Shown here piece after piece: positions 12,188-62,560 of a DNA stretch of 64,000 bases. The notes beneath the pieces were generated by a model. The model was given only the letters and a program-made list of their open reading frames with translations, was not told the DNA's origin and did not search any database. Position 1 is the stretch's first letter. Every line of letters begins with the position of its first letter. Both the position numbers and the translations under genes were made by a program. Source of the stretch: Clostridiales bacterium (lineage in GTDB: Bacteria; Bacillota; Clostridia; Christensenellales; CAG-138); the NCBI GenBank assembly GCA_012838425.1, contig DUPG01000001.1, positions 1-64,000 on the forward strand, written 5' to 3'.

Positions 12188-12217
12188 TTGACAGCTATTA
12201 TTTCTACCATTTATAAT
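12188..12217 (+). promoter_or_regulatory. Promoter of the lysine fermentation operon
   Basis: TTGACA (12188-12193) and TATAAT (12212-12217) with an 18-base spacer, both perfect hexamers, lie about 25 bases before the lysine riboswitch and in the right orientation for the kal-hbd genes. Confidence 0.82.
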
Positions 12218-12240
12218 GGGTGTAACAATTAAATATGTCA

Positions 12241-12411
12241 GATATAGAGGCGCAGATAGCAAGGTAGGCCTTATATAAACGAGGGGCGACTCGATAAGGT
12301 TTTCGAATGTGCTATTTGCCGAAAGTATATGTGCTTCGCCTATTGCGCATATGCTTGGGCATAACGCTCAGTGCGGTATGACTGTCATCTGGATTCGATG
12401 AAGAGCTATAT
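12241..12411 (+). ncRNA. Lysine riboswitch (L box)
   Basis: The conserved L-box words occur in order and spacing: TATAGAGGCGC, then GAGGGGCGAC, TTTGCCGAAAG, TGGGC, GACTGTCAT, and GATGAAGAGCTATAT. The outer P1 stem pairs ATATAG (12242-12247) with CTATAT (12406-12411). A perfect promoter precedes it and the kal start codon follows 63 bases later. Downstream, CACAAAT/ATTTGTG (12413-12430) can form a hairpin, and a run of seven T lies at 12441-12447. The T run is ten bases from the hairpin, so the switching mechanism is not clear. Because the genes degrade lysine, an on-switch is expected; this is inference. Confidence 0.85.
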
Positions 12412-12474
12412 TCACAAATACTCATTTGTGCGTATGGCAATTTTTTTGTTAAATCTTTTTAGGGAGGTAGAAAC

Positions 12475-12864
12475 GTGGCAGAGAAGGCGATTATCAGATT
12501 AAGAATGAGCAATCATGACGCGCATTACGGCGGCAATTTGGTTGACGGAGCGAGAATGCTTGCGTTGTTCGGCGATGTGGCGACAGAGCTTCTTATCAGG
12601 CATGACGGCGACGAGGGCTTGTTCGTTGCGTACGACAATGTAGAGTTCAAAGCACCCGTATTCGCAGGCGATTTTATCGAGGCTGAGGGCGAGATAGTTT
12701 CTGTCGGCAACTCATCACGAAAAATGGTATTCGAAGCAAGAAAGGTTATTACGGCAAGACCGGACATATCCGATTCAGCTTGCGATGTGTTGGACGAACC
12801 CTTAGTGGTTTGCCGTGCGAGCGGAACCTGCGTTGTTCCCAAAAACAAGCAGAGAAAGGGGTAA
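12475..12864 (+). CDS. kal: 3-aminobutyryl-CoA ammonia lyase
   Basis: Hotdog-fold enzyme that removes ammonia from L-3-aminobutyryl-CoA to give crotonyl-CoA in lysine fermentation. 129 residues, typical for Kal. The N terminus [21 protein letters not shown] matches the family closely. It starts with GTG, with GGAGG seven bases ahead. It is the first gene after the lysine riboswitch, and only four bases separate it from kce. Confidence 0.88.
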
Positions 12865-12868
12865 GGAG

Positions 12869-13696
12869 ATGGAAAAGCTAATCATCACAGCGGCTATTTG
12901 CGGCGCAGAAGTAACCAAGCAGCACAATCCTAATGTTCCTTATACTGTAGAGGAAATCGCGAACGAAGCATATGAGGCATACAAGGCGGGCGCTTCAATA
13001 ATTCACCTGCACGTTAGGTACGACGACGGTACTCCCACGCAGGACGCAAAGCGCTTTGAAGAATGTATGAAGGCTATTTACGCAAAATGCCCCGATGTTA
13101 TTATTCAGCCTTCAACAGGCGGCGCGGTGGGCATGACGAATGACGAGCGCTTGCAGCCCATAACTCTTAATCCCGAAATGGCTACATTGGATTGCGGCAC
13201 CTGTAATTTCGGCGGCGACGAGATTTTCGTAAACACGGAAAACATGATAATAGACTTCGTTGAGAAGATGAACGCACGCGGAATAAAGCCCGAAATAGAG
13301 GTGTTTGACAAGGGCATGATCGACACTGCTATAAGGCTCAACAAGAAGGGCTATATAAAGTCGCCCATGCACTTTGATTTTGTTATGGGCGTAAATGGCG
13401 GAATAACAGGCGAGCCGAGAGATTTGGTATATATGGCCGAGTCGATTCCTCAGGGAAGCACTTGGACAGTAGCCGGCATCGGCAGATTCGAGTTCCCCTT
13501 AGCCACAATGGCTATCATTATGGGCGGACATGTGCGCGTCGGCTTTGAGGATAACATTTATCTTTCAAAGGGCGTTCCTGCTAAGTCAAACGGCGAGTTA
13601 GTCGCGAAAGTCGTGCGCATAGCCAAAGAATTAGGCAGAGAAATTGCAACTCCCGACGAGGCAAGGGCAATTTTAGGCTTAAAGGCACGTGTCTAA
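12869..13696 (+). CDS. kce: 3-keto-5-aminohexanoate cleavage enzyme
   Basis: BKACE-family zinc enzyme that condenses 3-keto-5-aminohexanoate with acetyl-CoA, releasing acetoacetate and L-3-aminobutyryl-CoA. 275 residues, the expected length. The zinc-binding HLHVR lies near residue 46, with the family segments QPSTGGAVGMT and VRVGFEDN. The open frame extends upstream into kal, but ATG 12869 gives the conserved start MEKLIITAAICGAEV and lies seven bases after AAAGGGG. A 213-base repeat-bearing gap separates it from kdd. Confidence 0.92.
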   Translation: MEKLIITAAICGAEVTKQHNPNVPYTVEEIANEAYEAYKAGASIIHLHVRYDDGTPTQDAKRFEECMKAIYAKCPDVIIQPSTGGAVGMTNDERLQPITLNPEMATLDCGTCNFGGDEIFVNTENMIIDFVEKMNARGIKPEIEVFDKGMIDTAIRLNKKGYIKSPMHFDFVMGVNGGITGEPRDLVYMAESIPQGSTWTVAGIGRFEFPLATMAIIMGGHVRVGFEDNIYLSKGVPAKSNGELVAKVVRIAKELGREIATPDEARAILGLKARV

Positions 13697-13909
13697 TGAG
13701 GCGCTGCCCCACACCCAGTTTCTTTTCTAAAATGAAAAGAAGCAAAAGAACCCACTGACATTTAGCTTTTCGCGAAGCGAAAAATTTAGCATTGCGAAGC
13801 AATATTTAGCTGTTAACGAAGTAAATAATTTAGCGTCGCGAAGCGAACCACACCATCACTAAACAGGGATTGTTATCCTACAAATAAATCAAAATAATTG
13901 GAGGATTAT
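13697..13909 (+). repeat. Repeat block inside the lysine operon
   Basis: The kce-kdd gap holds a degenerate family-B unit (GCCCCACACCCAGTTTCTTT to AAAAGAAGCAAAAGAAC, 13706-13751). Four TTTAGC words follow at 13761, 13785, 13805 and 13829, each trailed by a small palindrome such as TTCGCGAAGCGAA or TTGCGAAGCAA. There is no T-rich terminator, so the operon probably reads through; the stems could alter mRNA stability or act as processing sites. Confidence 0.75.
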
Positions 13910-14950: not shown

Positions 14951-15036
14951 TTGACGCGAGTATGAGCAAGTGGGGAAACCCACTTGTTCGAAATTTAAGC
15001 GCAATTCTTTTATATATTTCAGAAAGGAAAGTGAAT

Positions 15037-16275
15037 ATGAACACCGTATTCGATCATATACCAAGAGAGCAGTTTAACGATTGGAAATGGCAGGTCGCCA
15101 ACCGAATCGAAACATTAGAGGACTTAAAAAAATACATACAGCTCACACCCGAGGAGGAAGCAGGCGTAAAGGAGTGTCTTAAAACGCTGCGCATGGCAAT
15201 TACGCCCTACTATCTTTCGCTGATAAACTTAGACGACCCGAATGACCCCGTGCGCAAGCAGGCAATACCTACTATTCGCGAGCTGCACAATGTGGAAGCA
15301 GACTTAAAGGACCCTCTGCACGAGGATACGGATTCGCCCGTATATGGCTTAACGCATCGCTATCCCGACAGAGTGCTTATACTCACAACAGACCAATGCT
15401 CAATGTATTGCAGGCACTGCACGCGCCGCAGATTCGCCGGCGTTACGGACTCCGCCTGCTCTTTAGCGCAGATAGACAAGTGCATAGAGTATGTAAGAGA
15501 GCATACCGAGGTGCGCGACTGTCTGCTTTCGGGCGGCGACTGCTTGATGCTTTCAGACGAAAGGCTTGAATACATAATTTCAAAGCTGCGTGAGATTAAG
15601 CACGTAGAGATAATAAGGCTTGGCACGAGAACTCCCGTTGTGCTTCCTCAAAGAATAACGCCTGAGCTGTGCAATATGCTGAAAAAATATCATCCCGTAT
15701 GGCTGAATACGCATTTCAACCACCCGAACGAGATTACTGAGGAATCCAAAAGAGCCTGCGCGATGCTGGCAGACGCGGGTATTCCTTTGGGCAACCAATC
15801 CGTATTGCTTGCAGGGGTTAACGACTGCGTGCATGTAATGAAAAAGCTGGTACATGAGCTTGTTAAGATGCGCGTTCGCCCGTACTATATTTATCAATGC
15901 GACTTGTCAATGGGCTTAGAGCATTTCAGAACGCCCGTAAGCAAGGGCATAGAGATTATAGAGGGCTTGCGGGGGCATACATCGGGCTTTGCTGTTCCGA
16001 CATACGTTGTTGACGCTCCCGGCGGCGGCGGCAAGATTCCCGTAATGCCCAACTACCTTATTTCACAAAGTCCGCACAAGGTCAATTTGAGAAACTTCGA
16101 GGGCGTTATAACCACATACACAGAGCCTGAAAGCTATAAAGAAACCTGTAACTGCGAGGTATGCAGAGGCGAAAAGCAAGCCGAGCTTATAGGCGTTTCA
16201 GGCTTGCAGCATGGCAACGGGCTTTCATTAGAGCCAATAGGATTAAAACGCAATCAAAGGAAGTGGGGCAGCTAA
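15037..16275 (+). CDS. kamA: L-lysine 2,3-aminomutase
   Basis: Radical SAM, PLP-dependent enzyme converting L-lysine to L-beta-lysine, first step of the pathway. 412 residues, near the 416 of the clostridial enzyme. The iron-sulfur motif CSMYCRHC lies near residue 122, the PLP-lysine motif PGGGGK near 331, and a C-terminal cysteine cluster CNCEVC near 370, which binds zinc in known KamA. The ATG at 15037 has AGAAAGGAAA upstream; the extra 25 codons of the open frame are not family-like. Its stop overlaps the kamD ATG by one base. Confidence 0.95.
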
Positions 16276-17843
16276 TGGCAGAGGTAAAAGAGAAGATTAG
16301 ATTAGACAAGAGTCTGATTGACAAGGCGAGGAATTCCGCAAAGCGAGTAGCGGAGAACACTCAAAGCTTCATAGATTTGCACACCACGATAGCGGTAGAG
16401 CGCGCGGTATGCAGACTATTGGGAATAGATGGCGTGAACGAATTTGAGGTTCCGCTACCCAATGTAGTATGCGACGCGCTGTATGGGCACGACCTTTTAT
16501 CGAATGGTGCAGCGTATGTAATAGGCTGTTTAATAAAGGAAACAGGGCTATCCCCGCAGAAAATAGCTGAGGGCATAGCTAATGGCGAAATAGATGTAGC
16601 GCAGTTTAAGCCCATATCCCATTTAGAAGCGAGAGAAGCCGTTGCCGACGCGGTGAACGCTACGATTCAGCGCATACGCAATAATGTCAGCACACGCAAA
16701 AGCTTCTTGGCAGAGTACGGCGATAAGGATACGCCCTATCTGTATGTTATAGTCGCTACGGGCAATATTTACGAGGATATTATTCAGGCGCAGGCGGCCG
16801 CAAGGCAGGGTGCTGACGTTATAGCCGTTATACGCACAACCGGACAGAGCTTATTGGATTATGTTCCCTATGGCCCAACAACAGAGGGTTTTGGCGGAAC
16901 ATACGCGACGCAGGAGAATTTCAGGCTGATGCGTGCGGCGTTAGACGAGGTAAGCAGGGAGCAGAAGCGTTATATACGCCTGTGCAATTACTGCTCCGGG
17001 CTATGTATGCCCGAAATAGCCGCTATGGGTGCGTTTGAAAGGCTTGATGTAATGCTGAACGACGCGCTGTACGGCATATTGTTCCGTGATATTAACCCTA
17101 AGCGCACGCTTATAGACCAATACTTCTCACGCGTTATAAACTCATTCGCTGGCGTAATAATAAACACAGGTGAGGACAACTATTTAACTACCGCTGACGC
17201 TGTCGAGGAAGCGCATACGGTGCTGGCTTCACAGTTTTTGAACGAGCAGTTTGCGCTTTGCGCGGGGCTTCCCGAGGAGCAGATGGGCTTAGGGCACGCG
17301 TTTGAGATTTCACCCGAAGTTGAAAACGGCTTCTTGTATGAAATAGCCCAAGCGCAGATGGCAAGGCAGATATTCCCCAAGGCGCCGCTGAAGTATATGC
17401 CGCCTACCAAGTTTATGACGGGCGATATATTCATGGGCAATGTGCAGGATGCGCTGTTCAACATAGTTACAATAGCCACAAACCAGCGCATACACCTGTT
17501 AGGCATGCTCACAGAGGCCATACATACGCCGTTTATGAGCGACAGGGCGTTGGCCATTGAAAACGCGAAATACATATTCAACACCATGAAGAACCTCAGC
17601 GACGAAATAGAGTTCAAGCAGGGCGGAATAATAGAAAACCGCGCTAACGAGGTATTGAAGCGCGCCGCAGAGCTTTTGGGCGATATAGAAAAGATGGGCA
17701 TATTCCAAACATTAGAGCAGGGAATTTTCGCAGGAATTAAGCGCTCAAGCGATGGCGGCAAGGGCTTGGCGGGAGTAGTTAAAAAGAGCGACATATACTT
17801 CAACCCGTTTATTGAAATAATGAAAGGGGAGGCAAAGCAATGA
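16275..17843 (+). CDS. kamD: Lysine 5,6-aminomutase alpha subunit
   Basis: PLP- and adenosylcobalamin-dependent enzyme that moves the terminal amino group of beta-lysine to C5, giving 3,5-diaminohexanoate. 522 residues, close to the known subunit. The N terminus KIRLDKSLIDKARNSAKRVA and segments VRAVCRL-like AVERAVCRLLGID and YVIVATGNIYEDIIQAQAAA match the alpha subunit. The start overlaps the kamA stop (TAATG) and the end overlaps kamE (ATGA), consistent with tightly coupled subunits. Confidence 0.94.
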   Translation: MAEVKEKIRLDKSLIDKARNSAKRVAENTQSFIDLHTTIAVERAVCRLLGIDGVNEFEVPLPNVVCDALYGHDLLSNGAAYVIGCLIKETGLSPQKIAEGIANGEIDVAQFKPISHLEAREAVADAVNATIQRIRNNVSTRKSFLAEYGDKDTPYLYVIVATGNIYEDIIQAQAAARQGADVIAVIRTTGQSLLDYVPYGPTTEGFGGTYATQENFRLMRAALDEVSREQKRYIRLCNYCSGLCMPEIAAMGAFERLDVMLNDALYGILFRDINPKRTLIDQYFSRVINSFAGVIINTGEDNYLTTADAVEEAHTVLASQFLNEQFALCAGLPEEQMGLGHAFEISPEVENGFLYEIAQAQMARQIFPKAPLKYMPPTKFMTGDIFMGNVQDALFNIVTIATNQRIHLLGMLTEAIHTPFMSDRALAIENAKYIFNTMKNLSDEIEFKQGGIIENRANEVLKRAAELLGDIEKMGIFQTLEQGIFAGIKRSSDGGKGLAGVVKKSDIYFNPFIEIMKGEAKQ

Positions 17844-18595
17844 ACGAAAAGGAATTGAATCTTAAACAGTTAAAGCCATACGGCGACACTTTGAACGACT
17901 CAAAGGTGCAGCTTTCGTTCACTCTGCCTGTTCCCAACGACGAAAAGGGCAAGGAAGCCGCAAGGATATTAGCCAAGAAAATGGGCTTATCCGAGCCCAA
18001 TGTAGCGCTTGCTAAGAGCTTAGATAAGGATTTTACCTTCTACATAGTTTACGGCACCTGCGTTCACAGCGTTGACTATACCGAGATTAAGGTTCAGGCG
18101 GTTGAATCCAAGGTTATGGAGATGGAGGAGACAGACGAGTTTATAAAAACGCACATAGGCAGGAAGGTTGTAGTAGTCGGCGCGGCTACGGGTTCAGACG
18201 CGCACACGGTAGGCATAGACGCTATTATGAACAGAAAGGGCTATGCCGGTCACTATGGCTTGGAGCGCTATGAGATGATAGACGCGCACAATTTAGGCGC
18301 ACAGGTGCCCAATGAGGAGTTCATTAGAAAGGCAGTAGAGCTTAATGCCGATGTGCTGCTTGTTTCACAAACGGTTACGCAAAAAGATGTTCACATTAAG
18401 AACCTGACAGAGCTTGTAGAGCTGTTAGAGGCTGAGGGCTTGCGCAGCCGCTTCATAGTGGTATGCGGAGGGGCAAGGATAACCCATGAATTAGCCAAGG
18501 AGCTGGGCTACGATGCAGGCTTCGGCGCAGGAACATTCGCAGAGCATGTTGCAAGCTTTGCGGTTGAAATGCTTGCGAAGAAGCTGAATAAATAA
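17840..18595 (+). CDS. kamE: Lysine 5,6-aminomutase beta subunit
   Basis: Cobalamin-binding subunit of the 5,6-aminomutase. 251 residues. The base-off B12 motif DxHxxG appears as DAHNLG with the downstream partner segment VLLVSQTVTQ and the glycine-rich VVCGGARI. The lysine that forms the PLP aldimine in the family is probably in AIMNRKGYAG, just before the B12 motif. The start overlaps kamD by four bases. Function therefore depends on a vitamin B12 supply, whose genes are not in this window. Confidence 0.94.
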   Translation: MNEKELNLKQLKPYGDTLNDSKVQLSFTLPVPNDEKGKEAARILAKKMGLSEPNVALAKSLDKDFTFYIVYGTCVHSVDYTEIKVQAVESKVMEMEETDEFIKTHIGRKVVVVGAATGSDAHTVGIDAIMNRKGYAGHYGLERYEMIDAHNLGAQVPNEEFIRKAVELNADVLLVSQTVTQKDVHIKNLTELVELLEAEGLRSRFIVVCGGARITHELAKELGYDAGFGAGTFAEHVASFAVEMLAKKLNK

Positions 18596-18612: not shown

Positions 18613-19386
18613 ATGAGCGTATTGTTCGAGTTGAAGGACCATGTAGGCGTAATTACGATTGACAGGCAGGAGGCACTCAACGCGCTTAACAGGCAAACGC
18701 TGTGGGAGCTGAAAAATGTAATCAACGGAGCCGAGGCCGACAAAGATGTGCGCGTGGTAGTAATCACAGGAGCCGGCAGGGCATTCGTAGCAGGCGCAGA
18801 CATAGCTGAGATGAGCGACATGAGCCCTCACGAAGCATACGAGTTCGCGCGCGTCGGCACTCATGTTTTCAACCGCATTGAAAGAGCACGCTTCCCCGTA
18901 ATAGCCGCCATTAACGGCTTTGCGCTGGGCGGTGGCTGCGAGCTGGCGCTTGCGTGTGATATTCGCTACTGCTCAACAAAGACTAAGTTCGCACAGCCCG
19001 AGGTTACATTAGGCATTACGCCGGGCTTCGGCGGCACGCAAAGGCTGCCACGCGTAATAGGTCTGCCCAACGCTATGGAGATGATACTCACAGGCGAAAT
19101 GGTTGACGCCGCAAAGGCTAAGTCGATAGGTCTTGTAAACGATGTGTTCGAGCCGGAAGAGCTTATGGAAAAGGTTATGGAAAAGGCGCGCGCAATAGCA
19201 GGCAACGCACCTATTGCAGTTAGCAAGGCAAAATCTGTAATACGCAGCTTCCATTGCTCTAACATCACCAACGACTTAGAGGCTGAGCATAATGTGTTCT
19301 CCGGCTGCTTCAAAACGCATGACCAGACAATGGCTATGGAGGCTTTCTTAAAGAAAGAGCAGCGCGGCGAATTCGAAGGCAGGTAA
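18613..19386 (+). CDS. crt: Enoyl-CoA hydratase (crotonase)
   Basis: Crotonase-fold enzyme expected to hydrate crotonyl-CoA to 3-hydroxybutyryl-CoA, or the reverse. 257 residues. It has the oxyanion-hole segment AGADIAEM near residue 60, the GGGCELALACD motif and the catalytic Glu region FAQPEVTLGITPGFGGTQRL. AAGGAGG precedes the ATG and 17 bases separate it from kamE, so it belongs to the same operon. Substrate is inferred from the neighbours Kal and Hbd. Confidence 0.9.
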   Translation: MSVLFELKDHVGVITIDRQEALNALNRQTLWELKNVINGAEADKDVRVVVITGAGRAFVAGADIAEMSDMSPHEAYEFARVGTHVFNRIERARFPVIAAINGFALGGGCELALACDIRYCSTKTKFAQPEVTLGITPGFGGTQRLPRVIGLPNAMEMILTGEMVDAAKAKSIGLVNDVFEPEELMEKVMEKARAIAGNAPIAVSKAKSVIRSFHCSNITNDLEAEHNVFSGCFKTHDQTMAMEAFLKKEQRGEFEGR

Positions 19387-57017: not shown

Positions 57018-57722
57018 TTAGTCCTTCTTGCGAAGTGTGAGAGCGCCCAAACCAGCAACTGCGCTGATGATTGCTACTGAAACGAGTGTCATGCCACCAG
57101 TTACAGGAGTTGTGGGTTCGTCTGTTTCTGTGGGTTCATCAGTGGGTTCATCTGTGGGTTCATCAGTGGGATCATCTGTGGGTTCATCAGTGGGGTCATC
57201 TGTGGGGTCATCTGTGGGGTCATCTGTGGGTTCTTCGCCCTTGATCTCGATTGAGCAGCCTGTTGCCTGAGTTTCGATCTCAGTTAATGTGTCGATCTCA
57301 ATGAGCTCTACAACCTCGAGTTCGAAATCGATCGTGCCTTTGAACTCAGGATCTACCAAGTCGAATACGAAGCCGAGCATTTCGCCGCCAGCATTTTGCT
57401 CTTCTGCGTTAGCGAAAGCTACCTTAACGATACCATCATCTTCGCCGTTAGCTTGCATGAGCCCCAAGTCGATATCAGTCTTCTGGATCTTAACATACTT
57501 CAGAACGCCTGTGGGGAATGAAAGATGCACAAGACCTGATGCAAATGCAGCGTCAGCGCTGATTGAAACCATAACGAGAACTTGATTTTGTTCTGTCAAT
57601 GTAGCTTCTGATGTGAAGACAACAGGTCTTACCGGATTGGGATTCTCAGTCTCTGCGAGTGCAGGTGCCGCAAATGCGAATACAAGTGCAAGCACGATTG
57701 CTAATGCAATTGTCTTTTTCAT
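57018..57722 (-). CDS. Wall-anchored cohesin-like protein (first of three)
   Basis: A 234-residue surface protein. Signal peptide MKKTIALAIVLALVFAFAAP to about residue 23. Cohesin-like module (about 30-155) with SGLVHLSFPTGVLKY, VAFANAEEQNAGGEM and end TGCSIEI. The linker (about 160-204) is a run of PTDD/PTDE tetrapeptides. Anchor TPVTGG (205-210), hydrophobic helix, RKKD. It has its own strong promoter and terminator, and codon choice looks like that of a highly expressed gene. Sortase is not encoded in the window. Confidence 0.75.
   Translation of the reverse strand: MKKTIALAIVLALVFAFAAPALAETENPNPVRPVVFTSEATLTEQNQVLVMVSISADAAFASGLVHLSFPTGVLKYVKIQKTDIDLGLMQANGEDDGIVKVAFANAEEQNAGGEMLGFVFDLVDPEFKGTIDFELEVVELIEIDTLTEIETQATGCSIEIKGEEPTDDPTDDPTDDPTDEPTDDPTDEPTDEPTDEPTETDEPTTPVTGGMTLVSVAIISAVAGLGALTLRKKD
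57140..57236 (-). repeat. Twelve-base coding repeats (PTDD/PTDE)
   Basis: Tandem units such as TGATGAACCCACAGATGACC-like 12-mers encode Pro-Thr-Asp-Asp or Pro-Thr-Asp-Glu in the wall-spanning linker. Copy number is likely to vary between strains. Confidence 0.8.
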
Positions 57723-62284: not shown

Positions 62285-62560
62285 AAAAGCATATTCATTC
62301 ACGTAAAGCGCGTTTTCATTCGCCACTATGCGTCTTCATGCACGCAAAGCATGTATTCATTCGCCACTATGCGTCTTCATGCACGCAAAGCATGTATTTA
62401 TTCGCCACTATGCGTCTTCATGCACGCAAAGCATGTATTCATTTGCTCCGCAGGAGCATCTTCATTCGCCACAGGCGTCTTCATTCACGCGAAGCGTGTC
62501 TTCATTCGGGCACAGCCCGTCTTCATTCGCCGCAGGCGTCTTCATTGCGTGCCTAAGCAC
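62285..62560 (+). repeat. Array of TTCATT-hairpin units
   Basis: Thirteen TTCAT[TG]-type words (one variant TTTATT) start at 62294, 62315, 62335, 62356, 62376, 62397, 62417, 62438, 62461, 62480, 62501, 62522 and 62541, spaced 19-23 bases. Between them are small palindromes such as CGCCACAGGCG, CACGCGAAGCGTG and CGGGCACAGCCCG. A 41-base double unit occurs three times in tandem from 62315 (the third has one base change). Spacing near 21 bases makes some frames open (VFIR/VFIH every seven codons), but these are not genes. Confidence 0.85.

What the first reader, a model, noticed from the sequence alone, without database searches (positions are those of the whole stretch)
12188..12474. Lysine riboswitch ahead of a lysine-degrading operon
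A perfect promoter, an L-box aptamer and then kal-kce-kdd-kamADE lie in order. Most lysine riboswitches turn biosynthesis or uptake off when lysine binds. A degradation operon would need the opposite response. The expression platform is not standard: the stem CACAAAT/ATTTGTG ends ten bases before a seven-T run, so it may not be a plain terminator.
Basis: partly seen in the sequence, partly recalled or inferred. Interest (0 to 1): 0.75.

Follow-up and report, generated by a model that had tools for sequence, protein, structure and literature searches.

The report
Lysine-activated riboswitch for lysine fermentation
An RNA sensor at the start of this operon very probably turns on lysine-fermentation genes when lysine is plentiful, because the strand that closes the lysine-binding fold is the same strand needed to build the transcription stop signal; this kind of switch was predicted before, but relatives carry an apparently undescribed version with two or three successive stop gates.

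Summary
A lysine aptamer (RF00168, 72.4 bits, cut-off 30) lies at 12237-12416, behind a perfect sigma-70-type promoter and ahead of kal-kce-kdd-kamA-kamD-kamE-crt-hbd. P1 and terminator exclude each other, which predicts that lysine turns the operon ON. In 52 of 52 kal-linked leaders with a scorable terminator, the terminator needs the P1 3' strand (median loss 18 kcal/mol without it); riboswitches before synthesis and transport genes mostly do not. ON logic for lysine riboswitches, and lysine riboswitches before kal, are already in the literature (PMC2258182, PMC5584792): a new member of a known kind. Lysine binding and induction were not tested here. Unexpected in relatives: 27 of about 81 kal leaders carry a second copy of the aptamer's 3' end behind the first terminator, usually building a second terminator, and covarying with the aptamer's P5 strand: one aptamer, two or three gates. 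The window's leader has one gate.

The parts
12188..12217 (+). sigma-70-type promoter TTGACA-18-TATAAT; start of transcription expected near 12224
   Evidence: 12/12 match, unique in the window, 0.04 expected by chance
12237..12416 (+). lysine riboswitch aptamer (L box)
   Evidence: RF00168, 72.4 bits, model 1-182, gathering score 30
12241..12247 (+). P1 5' strand GAUAUAG
   Evidence: pairs with 12406-12412; P1 probability 0.86 in a transcript ending at 12431
12405..12412 (+). switch strand: P1 3' strand, also the outer 5' strand of the terminator
   Evidence: MFE of the full leader and of the isolated hairpin both use it in the terminator; P1 is lost when 12432-12438 is transcribed
12405..12438 (+). 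terminator hairpin: 7 bp outer stem, U-C mismatch, 7 bp inner stem, ACUC loop
   Evidence: -14.6 kcal/mol, z -3.9
12441..12447 (+). U7 tract of the terminator
   Evidence: sequence
12461..12467 (+). Shine-Dalgarno AGGGAGG, 7 nt before the GTG start of kal
   Evidence: sequence
12475..12864 (+). kal, 3-aminobutyryl-CoA ammonia lyase
   Evidence: NF052388, 202.8 bits, cut-off 160
12869..13696 (+). kce, 3-keto-5-aminohexanoate cleavage enzyme (probable ATG start)
   Evidence: NF052387, 470.6 bits, cut-off 382; PF05853
13910..14950 (+). kdd, L-erythro-3,5-diaminohexanoate dehydrogenase
   Evidence: NF052381, 261.6 bits, cut-off 200
14962..16275 (+). kamA, lysine 2,3-aminomutase
   Evidence: TIGR03820, 629 bits, cut-off 525
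16275..17843 (+). kamD, lysine 5,6-aminomutase alpha subunit
   Evidence: NF052384, 901 bits, cut-off 600
17840..18595 (+). kamE, lysine 5,6-aminomutase beta subunit
   Evidence: NF052385, 405 bits, cut-off 280
18613..19386 (+). crotonase-type enoyl-CoA hydratase
   Evidence: PF00378, 216 bits
19401..20243 (+). hbd, 3-hydroxybutyryl-CoA dehydrogenase
   Evidence: NF004474, 427 bits, cut-off 408

Best explanation
This is a transcriptional lysine ON riboswitch. Transcription starts near 12224. The aptamer folds first, and P1 (12241-12247 with 12406-12412) is favoured while the RNA is short. When 12432-12438 emerges it competes for the same P1 3' strand. Without lysine the terminator wins and RNA polymerase stops at the U7 tract. 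With lysine bound, P1 is held; the terminator loses its outer seven pairs, the leftover hairpin ends ten bases short of the U tract, and transcription runs into kal-kce-kdd-kamADE-crt-hbd. Shown by computation: the aptamer, the operon, the strand sharing, its conservation and the order of folding. Inferred: that lysine is the ligand, that it stabilises P1 in time, and that the operon is induced.
For: RF00168 72.4 bits. The MFE of the whole leader puts the P1 3' strand into the terminator. Partition function along the transcript: P1 0.86 at 12431, then P1 0.00 and terminator outer stem 0.99 at 12438; forcing P1 costs 6.2 kcal/mol. Without the P1 strand only a -5.4 kcal/mol hairpin remains, away from the U tract. 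59 of 61 kal-bearing genomes among 151 relatives have RF00168 just upstream. In 52/52 kal leaders with a scored terminator, it depends on the P1 3' strand (difference -8 to -25, median -18 kcal/mol); among other riboswitches the median is +4 and 13/68 reach -5 or lower. Those others precede asd, an NhaC-type transporter, an ABC binding protein, lysC, lysA and dapA, often in the same genomes (genes named by me from the sequences of the clusters, not by a profile search). The fifth P1 position changes as G-C/A-U/U-A in step with both alternative partners. The same strand sharing recurs outside the family (G534, G180, G222, G403, G461, G504, an Anaerolineaceae MAG, a Mycoplasmatota genome). Independent physiology: the lysine-pathway proteins of Intestinimonas AF211 rise about 10-fold on lysine (PMC4697335; Kal itself was not detected), though that paper names no riboswitch.
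Against: No binding, transcription or reporter data exist for this leader. P1 is short and A/U-rich (-3.6 kcal/mol as a duplex), so switching depends on ligand and kinetics that the folding programs do not model. The terminator has only four G-C pairs, one mismatch and two A's before the U tract, and the built-in terminator scan missed it.
Confidence: 0.92

Rival explanations
1. Ordinary OFF switch: lysine binding favours the terminator and lowers expression of the degradation operon.
For: Most characterised lysine riboswitches (lysC of B. subtilis and E. coli) are OFF switches, and the relatives' biosynthesis and transport riboswitches mostly have terminators independent of P1.
Against: P1 and terminator share one strand, so a ligand that stabilises P1 cannot favour this terminator; no P1-independent terminator was found in the leader; it would shut off lysine use when lysine is present.
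Confidence: 0.03
2. Translational control: the aptamer governs access to the kal ribosome-binding site.
For: The Shine-Dalgarno sequence lies only about 20 nt behind the hairpin.
Against: By eye, no CCUCC-type anti-Shine-Dalgarno stretch occurs in 12225-12460; the switching helix is followed by a U7 tract, and kal leaders as a group keep a U tract behind the hairpin.
Confidence: 0.02
3. The aptamer reads another ligand of the pathway, such as beta-lysine made by kamA.
For: The operon makes beta-lysine; ligand identity cannot be tested by sequence.
Against: The conserved core segments (UAGAGG, GCCGAA, UGGGC, GACUGUCA, AGnGCUA) match the RF00168 consensus, and the score is well above the cut-off.
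Confidence: 0.03

Closest known systems
Lysine riboswitches with ON logic (named in Barrick and Breaker 2007, PMC2258182, citing Rodionov et al. 2003)
   Same: Ligand binding buries part of a terminator stem in an alternative pairing; transcription control; lysine aptamer.
   Different: Nothing essential for the window's single-gate leader; this is a new member, in an uncultured Clostridia lineage.
Lysine riboswitches upstream of kal/kce in Clostridium sticklandii, Fusobacterium nucleatum and Thermoanaerobacter (Mukherjee et al. 2017, PMC5584792)
   Same: Same aptamer family in front of the same lysine-fermentation genes, stated there to be positively regulated.
   Different: The passages I read give no expression-platform mechanism; here the operon runs to hbd and the P1/terminator sharing is shown across 52 leaders.
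Adenine pbuE and glycine ON riboswitches
   Same: Aptamer helix competes directly with the terminator; catabolism or export turned on by the metabolite (from PMC2258182 and general knowledge).
   Different: Different ligand and fold.
Tandem (pseudo-cooperative) lysine riboswitches (review PMC9481103: 14 double lysine riboswitches)
   Same: Two lysine-fermentation operons found here (G461, G504) carry two complete aptamers in tandem, each with a terminator.
   Different: The window has one aptamer and one gate; the duplicated 3'-end gates seen in relatives have one aptamer and two or three gates, an arrangement not found in the passages of that review I read.

Membership tests
Lysine riboswitch (RF00168) | Covariance-model score above the gathering score, full length | tested here: met
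   72.4 bits, cut-off 30, model 1-182
Lysine riboswitch (RF00168) | Conserved core segments and P1 closing the five-helix junction | tested here: met
   Alignment; P1 pairs 12241-12247 with 12406-12412
Lysine riboswitch (RF00168) | Located in the leader of a lysine-related operon | tested here: met
   kal-kce-kdd-kamADE directly downstream
Lysine riboswitch (RF00168) | Selective binding of L-lysine | not testable with these tools
   needs in-line probing or calorimetry
Transcriptional ON riboswitch | Aptamer helix and terminator share a strand, so they exclude each other | tested here: met
   conserved in 52/52 kal leaders with a scored terminator
Transcriptional ON riboswitch | U tract directly behind the hairpin | tested here: met
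   U7 at 12441-12447, 2 nt after the stem
Transcriptional ON riboswitch | Ligand raises read-through | not testable with these tools
   needs in vitro transcription or a reporter
Multi-gate lysine leader (second copy of the aptamer 3' end) | Second P5-3'/GNGCGCUAU copy after the first terminator | tested here: not met
   the window's leader has no second copy

The most novel reading that the evidence does not exclude
In relatives, though not in the window, one lysine aptamer serves two or three terminators in series. The aptamer's 3' end (P5 3' strand, J5/1, P1 3' strand) is repeated behind the first terminator, usually as the 5' strand of a second one. When lysine is bound the first gate is passed; copy 1 can then fall back into its now harmless terminator hairpin while copy 2 takes its place in the aptamer and opens the second gate. 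This would be a strand-exchange relay that rechecks lysine at each gate: one aptamer with several expression platforms. Basis: 27 of about 81 kal leaders against 0 of 77 other lysine riboswitches; copy 2 keeps 5-6 of 6 pairs with the P5 5' strand (chance 2.3) and covaries with it over 14 distinct combinations (0 of 10,000 permutations reach it, without correction for relatedness); a terminator-like hairpin built on copy 2 in about 20 of 27; the two docked states differ by -9.8 to +6.1 kcal/mol in 18 leaders computed; RF00168 itself ends on copy 2 in two genomes. One Lachnospiraceae leader (L252) shows three gates.
Probability: 0.35. Interest if true: 0.75.

Novelty: new member of a known kind. 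Interest (0 to 1): 0.45.

Why it matters
Lysine-to-butyrate fermentation in gut bacteria yields butyrate for the host and is induced by lysine (PMC4697335). The leader offers a simple, testable answer to how the operon senses its substrate without a protein regulator, and a clean natural contrast: the same aptamer family is wired ON before degradation genes and apparently OFF before synthesis and uptake genes, often within one genome. If the repeated-gate leaders of relatives work as a relay, they would be a new way to build a sharp or proofread response from a single riboswitch aptamer.

Tried and rejected
Reading the platform as non-terminator: rejected after finding the outer stem. OFF logic and translational control: see rivals. 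Chance origin of the P1/terminator overlap: rejected because non-kal riboswitches, scored the same way, mostly lack it; the 13 of 68 that scored -5 or lower were not resolved one by one. A second-gate motif in the window's own leader: searched, absent. The simple terminator scan and the first-pass RF00168 filters miss true cases: a more permissive scan recovered aptamers in six of eight kal leaders that seemed to lack one. RF00168 control of kal is patchy phylum-wide: of 77 further kal genomes, 3 have it directly upstream and 3 at the head of the operon, so it is not a general feature of lysine fermenters; Tissierella, Geosporobacter, Maledivibacter and Porphyromonas loci showed none in the DNA fetched. 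One apparent second copy (L192) was the first terminator's own 3' strand and is not counted. Not read: Rodionov 2003 and Serganov and Patel 2009, neither held in the library.

Full report
What is there. A consensus promoter (12188-12217), a full-length lysine aptamer (RF00168, 12237-12416, 72.4 bits) and a lysine-fermentation operon, kal-kce-kdd-kamA-kamD-kamE plus crotonase-type and hbd genes, lie in order on the + strand. The aptamer is the only lysine riboswitch found in the assembly. The same assembly has dapA and an aspartokinase but no lysA hit (assembly about 95% complete), so the organism may depend on outside lysine.

How it switches. The outer half pairs GCUAUAU (12405-12411), which is the P1 3' strand, with GUAUGGC (12432-12438), and the U7 tract follows after two A's. 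Both the whole-leader fold and the local fold choose this structure. Along the growing transcript P1 is favoured at 12431 (probability 0.86) and vanishes once 12438 is out, when the terminator reaches 0.99; the difference is 6.2 kcal/mol without ligand. With the P1 strand taken away, only a -5.4 kcal/mol hairpin remains, ten bases short of the U tract. A ligand that holds P1 can therefore only open this gate: an ON switch.

Comparative test. RF00168 was searched in 151 genomes and kal in the same set. Of 61 kal genomes, 59 have the aptamer just upstream once weak hits are recovered. For each riboswitch I scored the best terminator hairpin with and without the P1 3' strand. All 52 kal leaders with a scored terminator need it (difference -8 to -25, median -18 kcal/mol); one more kal leader, G067, gave no terminator within the length limit used. 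Other riboswitches, ahead of asd, NhaC-type transporter, ABC binding protein, lysC, lysA and dapA genes, have a median of +4. Several genomes carry both kinds. At the variable fifth P1 position the switch strand changes together with both partners (G-C, A-U, U-A), as expected if both helices matter. Leaders from other families behave the same way, including two with tandem complete aptamers (G461, G504). In Clostridium frigidicarnis, C. oryzae and Alkalithermobacter the P1-dependent hairpin is followed by a separate terminator; by eye, its 3' strand could act as antiterminator when freed by P1, which would give the same sign (inference).

What is known. Barrick and Breaker (PMC2258182) state that certain lysine riboswitches have ON logic and work by burying terminator pieces, citing Rodionov 2003. 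Mukherjee et al. (PMC5584792) report lysine riboswitches before kal genes in C. sticklandii, F. nucleatum and Thermoanaerobacter and call them positively regulated, citing a review. The Intestinimonas AF211 operon proteins are about 10-fold induced by lysine (PMC4697335). The window's element is therefore a new member of a known kind.

Unexpected lead. Twenty of 53 family leaders, and seven others, repeat the aptamer's 3' end behind the first U tract. An eighth, L052 (G005), shows it by eye but was missed by the scan. None of 77 non-kal lysine riboswitches does. In about 20 of 27 the copy is the 5' strand of a second terminator-like hairpin; in the rest, mainly genus g21, that is unclear. The copy keeps its P5 3' segment, which that hairpin mostly does not need, and this segment covaries with the aptamer's P5 5' strand (for example UCGUC/GACGG, UCAUC/GAUGG, UCAUGC/GCAUGA, UCAUAU/AUAUGA); 14 distinct combinations exceed all 10,000 permutations. 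Relatedness and inherited duplication inflate that figure, so it is support, not proof. Energies of the two alternative docked states are close in many of 18 leaders computed (-9.8 to +6.1 kcal/mol). L252 has three such gates. No passage I found in the tandem-riboswitch review lists one aptamer with several strand-sharing platforms; searches for 'tandem terminators' and 'second terminator' gave no such case. A plain alternative is that the copies are remnants of decayed tandem riboswitches, kept only as extra terminators. A few leaders may be counted twice because two genome collections were used.

Noticed in passing
L053, L040, L046, L076, L034 and others listed; L252 2574-3000: Second (in L252 also third) copy of the aptamer 3' end plus terminator behind the first gate of kal leaders; covaries with the aptamer's P5 5' strand. 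Not present in the window.
   Followed up: partly
L174 201-645 and L175 (reverse strand): Tandem complete lysine aptamers, each with an ON-type terminator, at the head of a kdd-first lysine-fermentation operon (G461, G504); G461 also has a third gate.
   Followed up: partly
L195 2717-3010, L219 2741-3010, L238 340-664: Clostridium-type kal leaders with a P1-dependent hairpin followed by a separate terminator whose 5' strand could pair with the hairpin's 3' strand: a second, three-part design with the same predicted ON sign.
   Followed up: partly
window 13760-13847: Imperfect 22/44-bp tandem units (ATTTAGC...GCGAAGC) in the 200-nt gap between kce and kdd; possibly a REP-like element inside the operon.
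   Followed up: no
own genome (G000): No lysA found although dapA and an aspartokinase are present; the assembly is about 95% complete, so lysine auxotrophy is possible but unproven.
   Followed up: partly
window 62294-62546 and 57127-57233: Tandem repeat arrays (41-bp units at 93% matches; 12/24-bp units), not examined.
   Followed up: no
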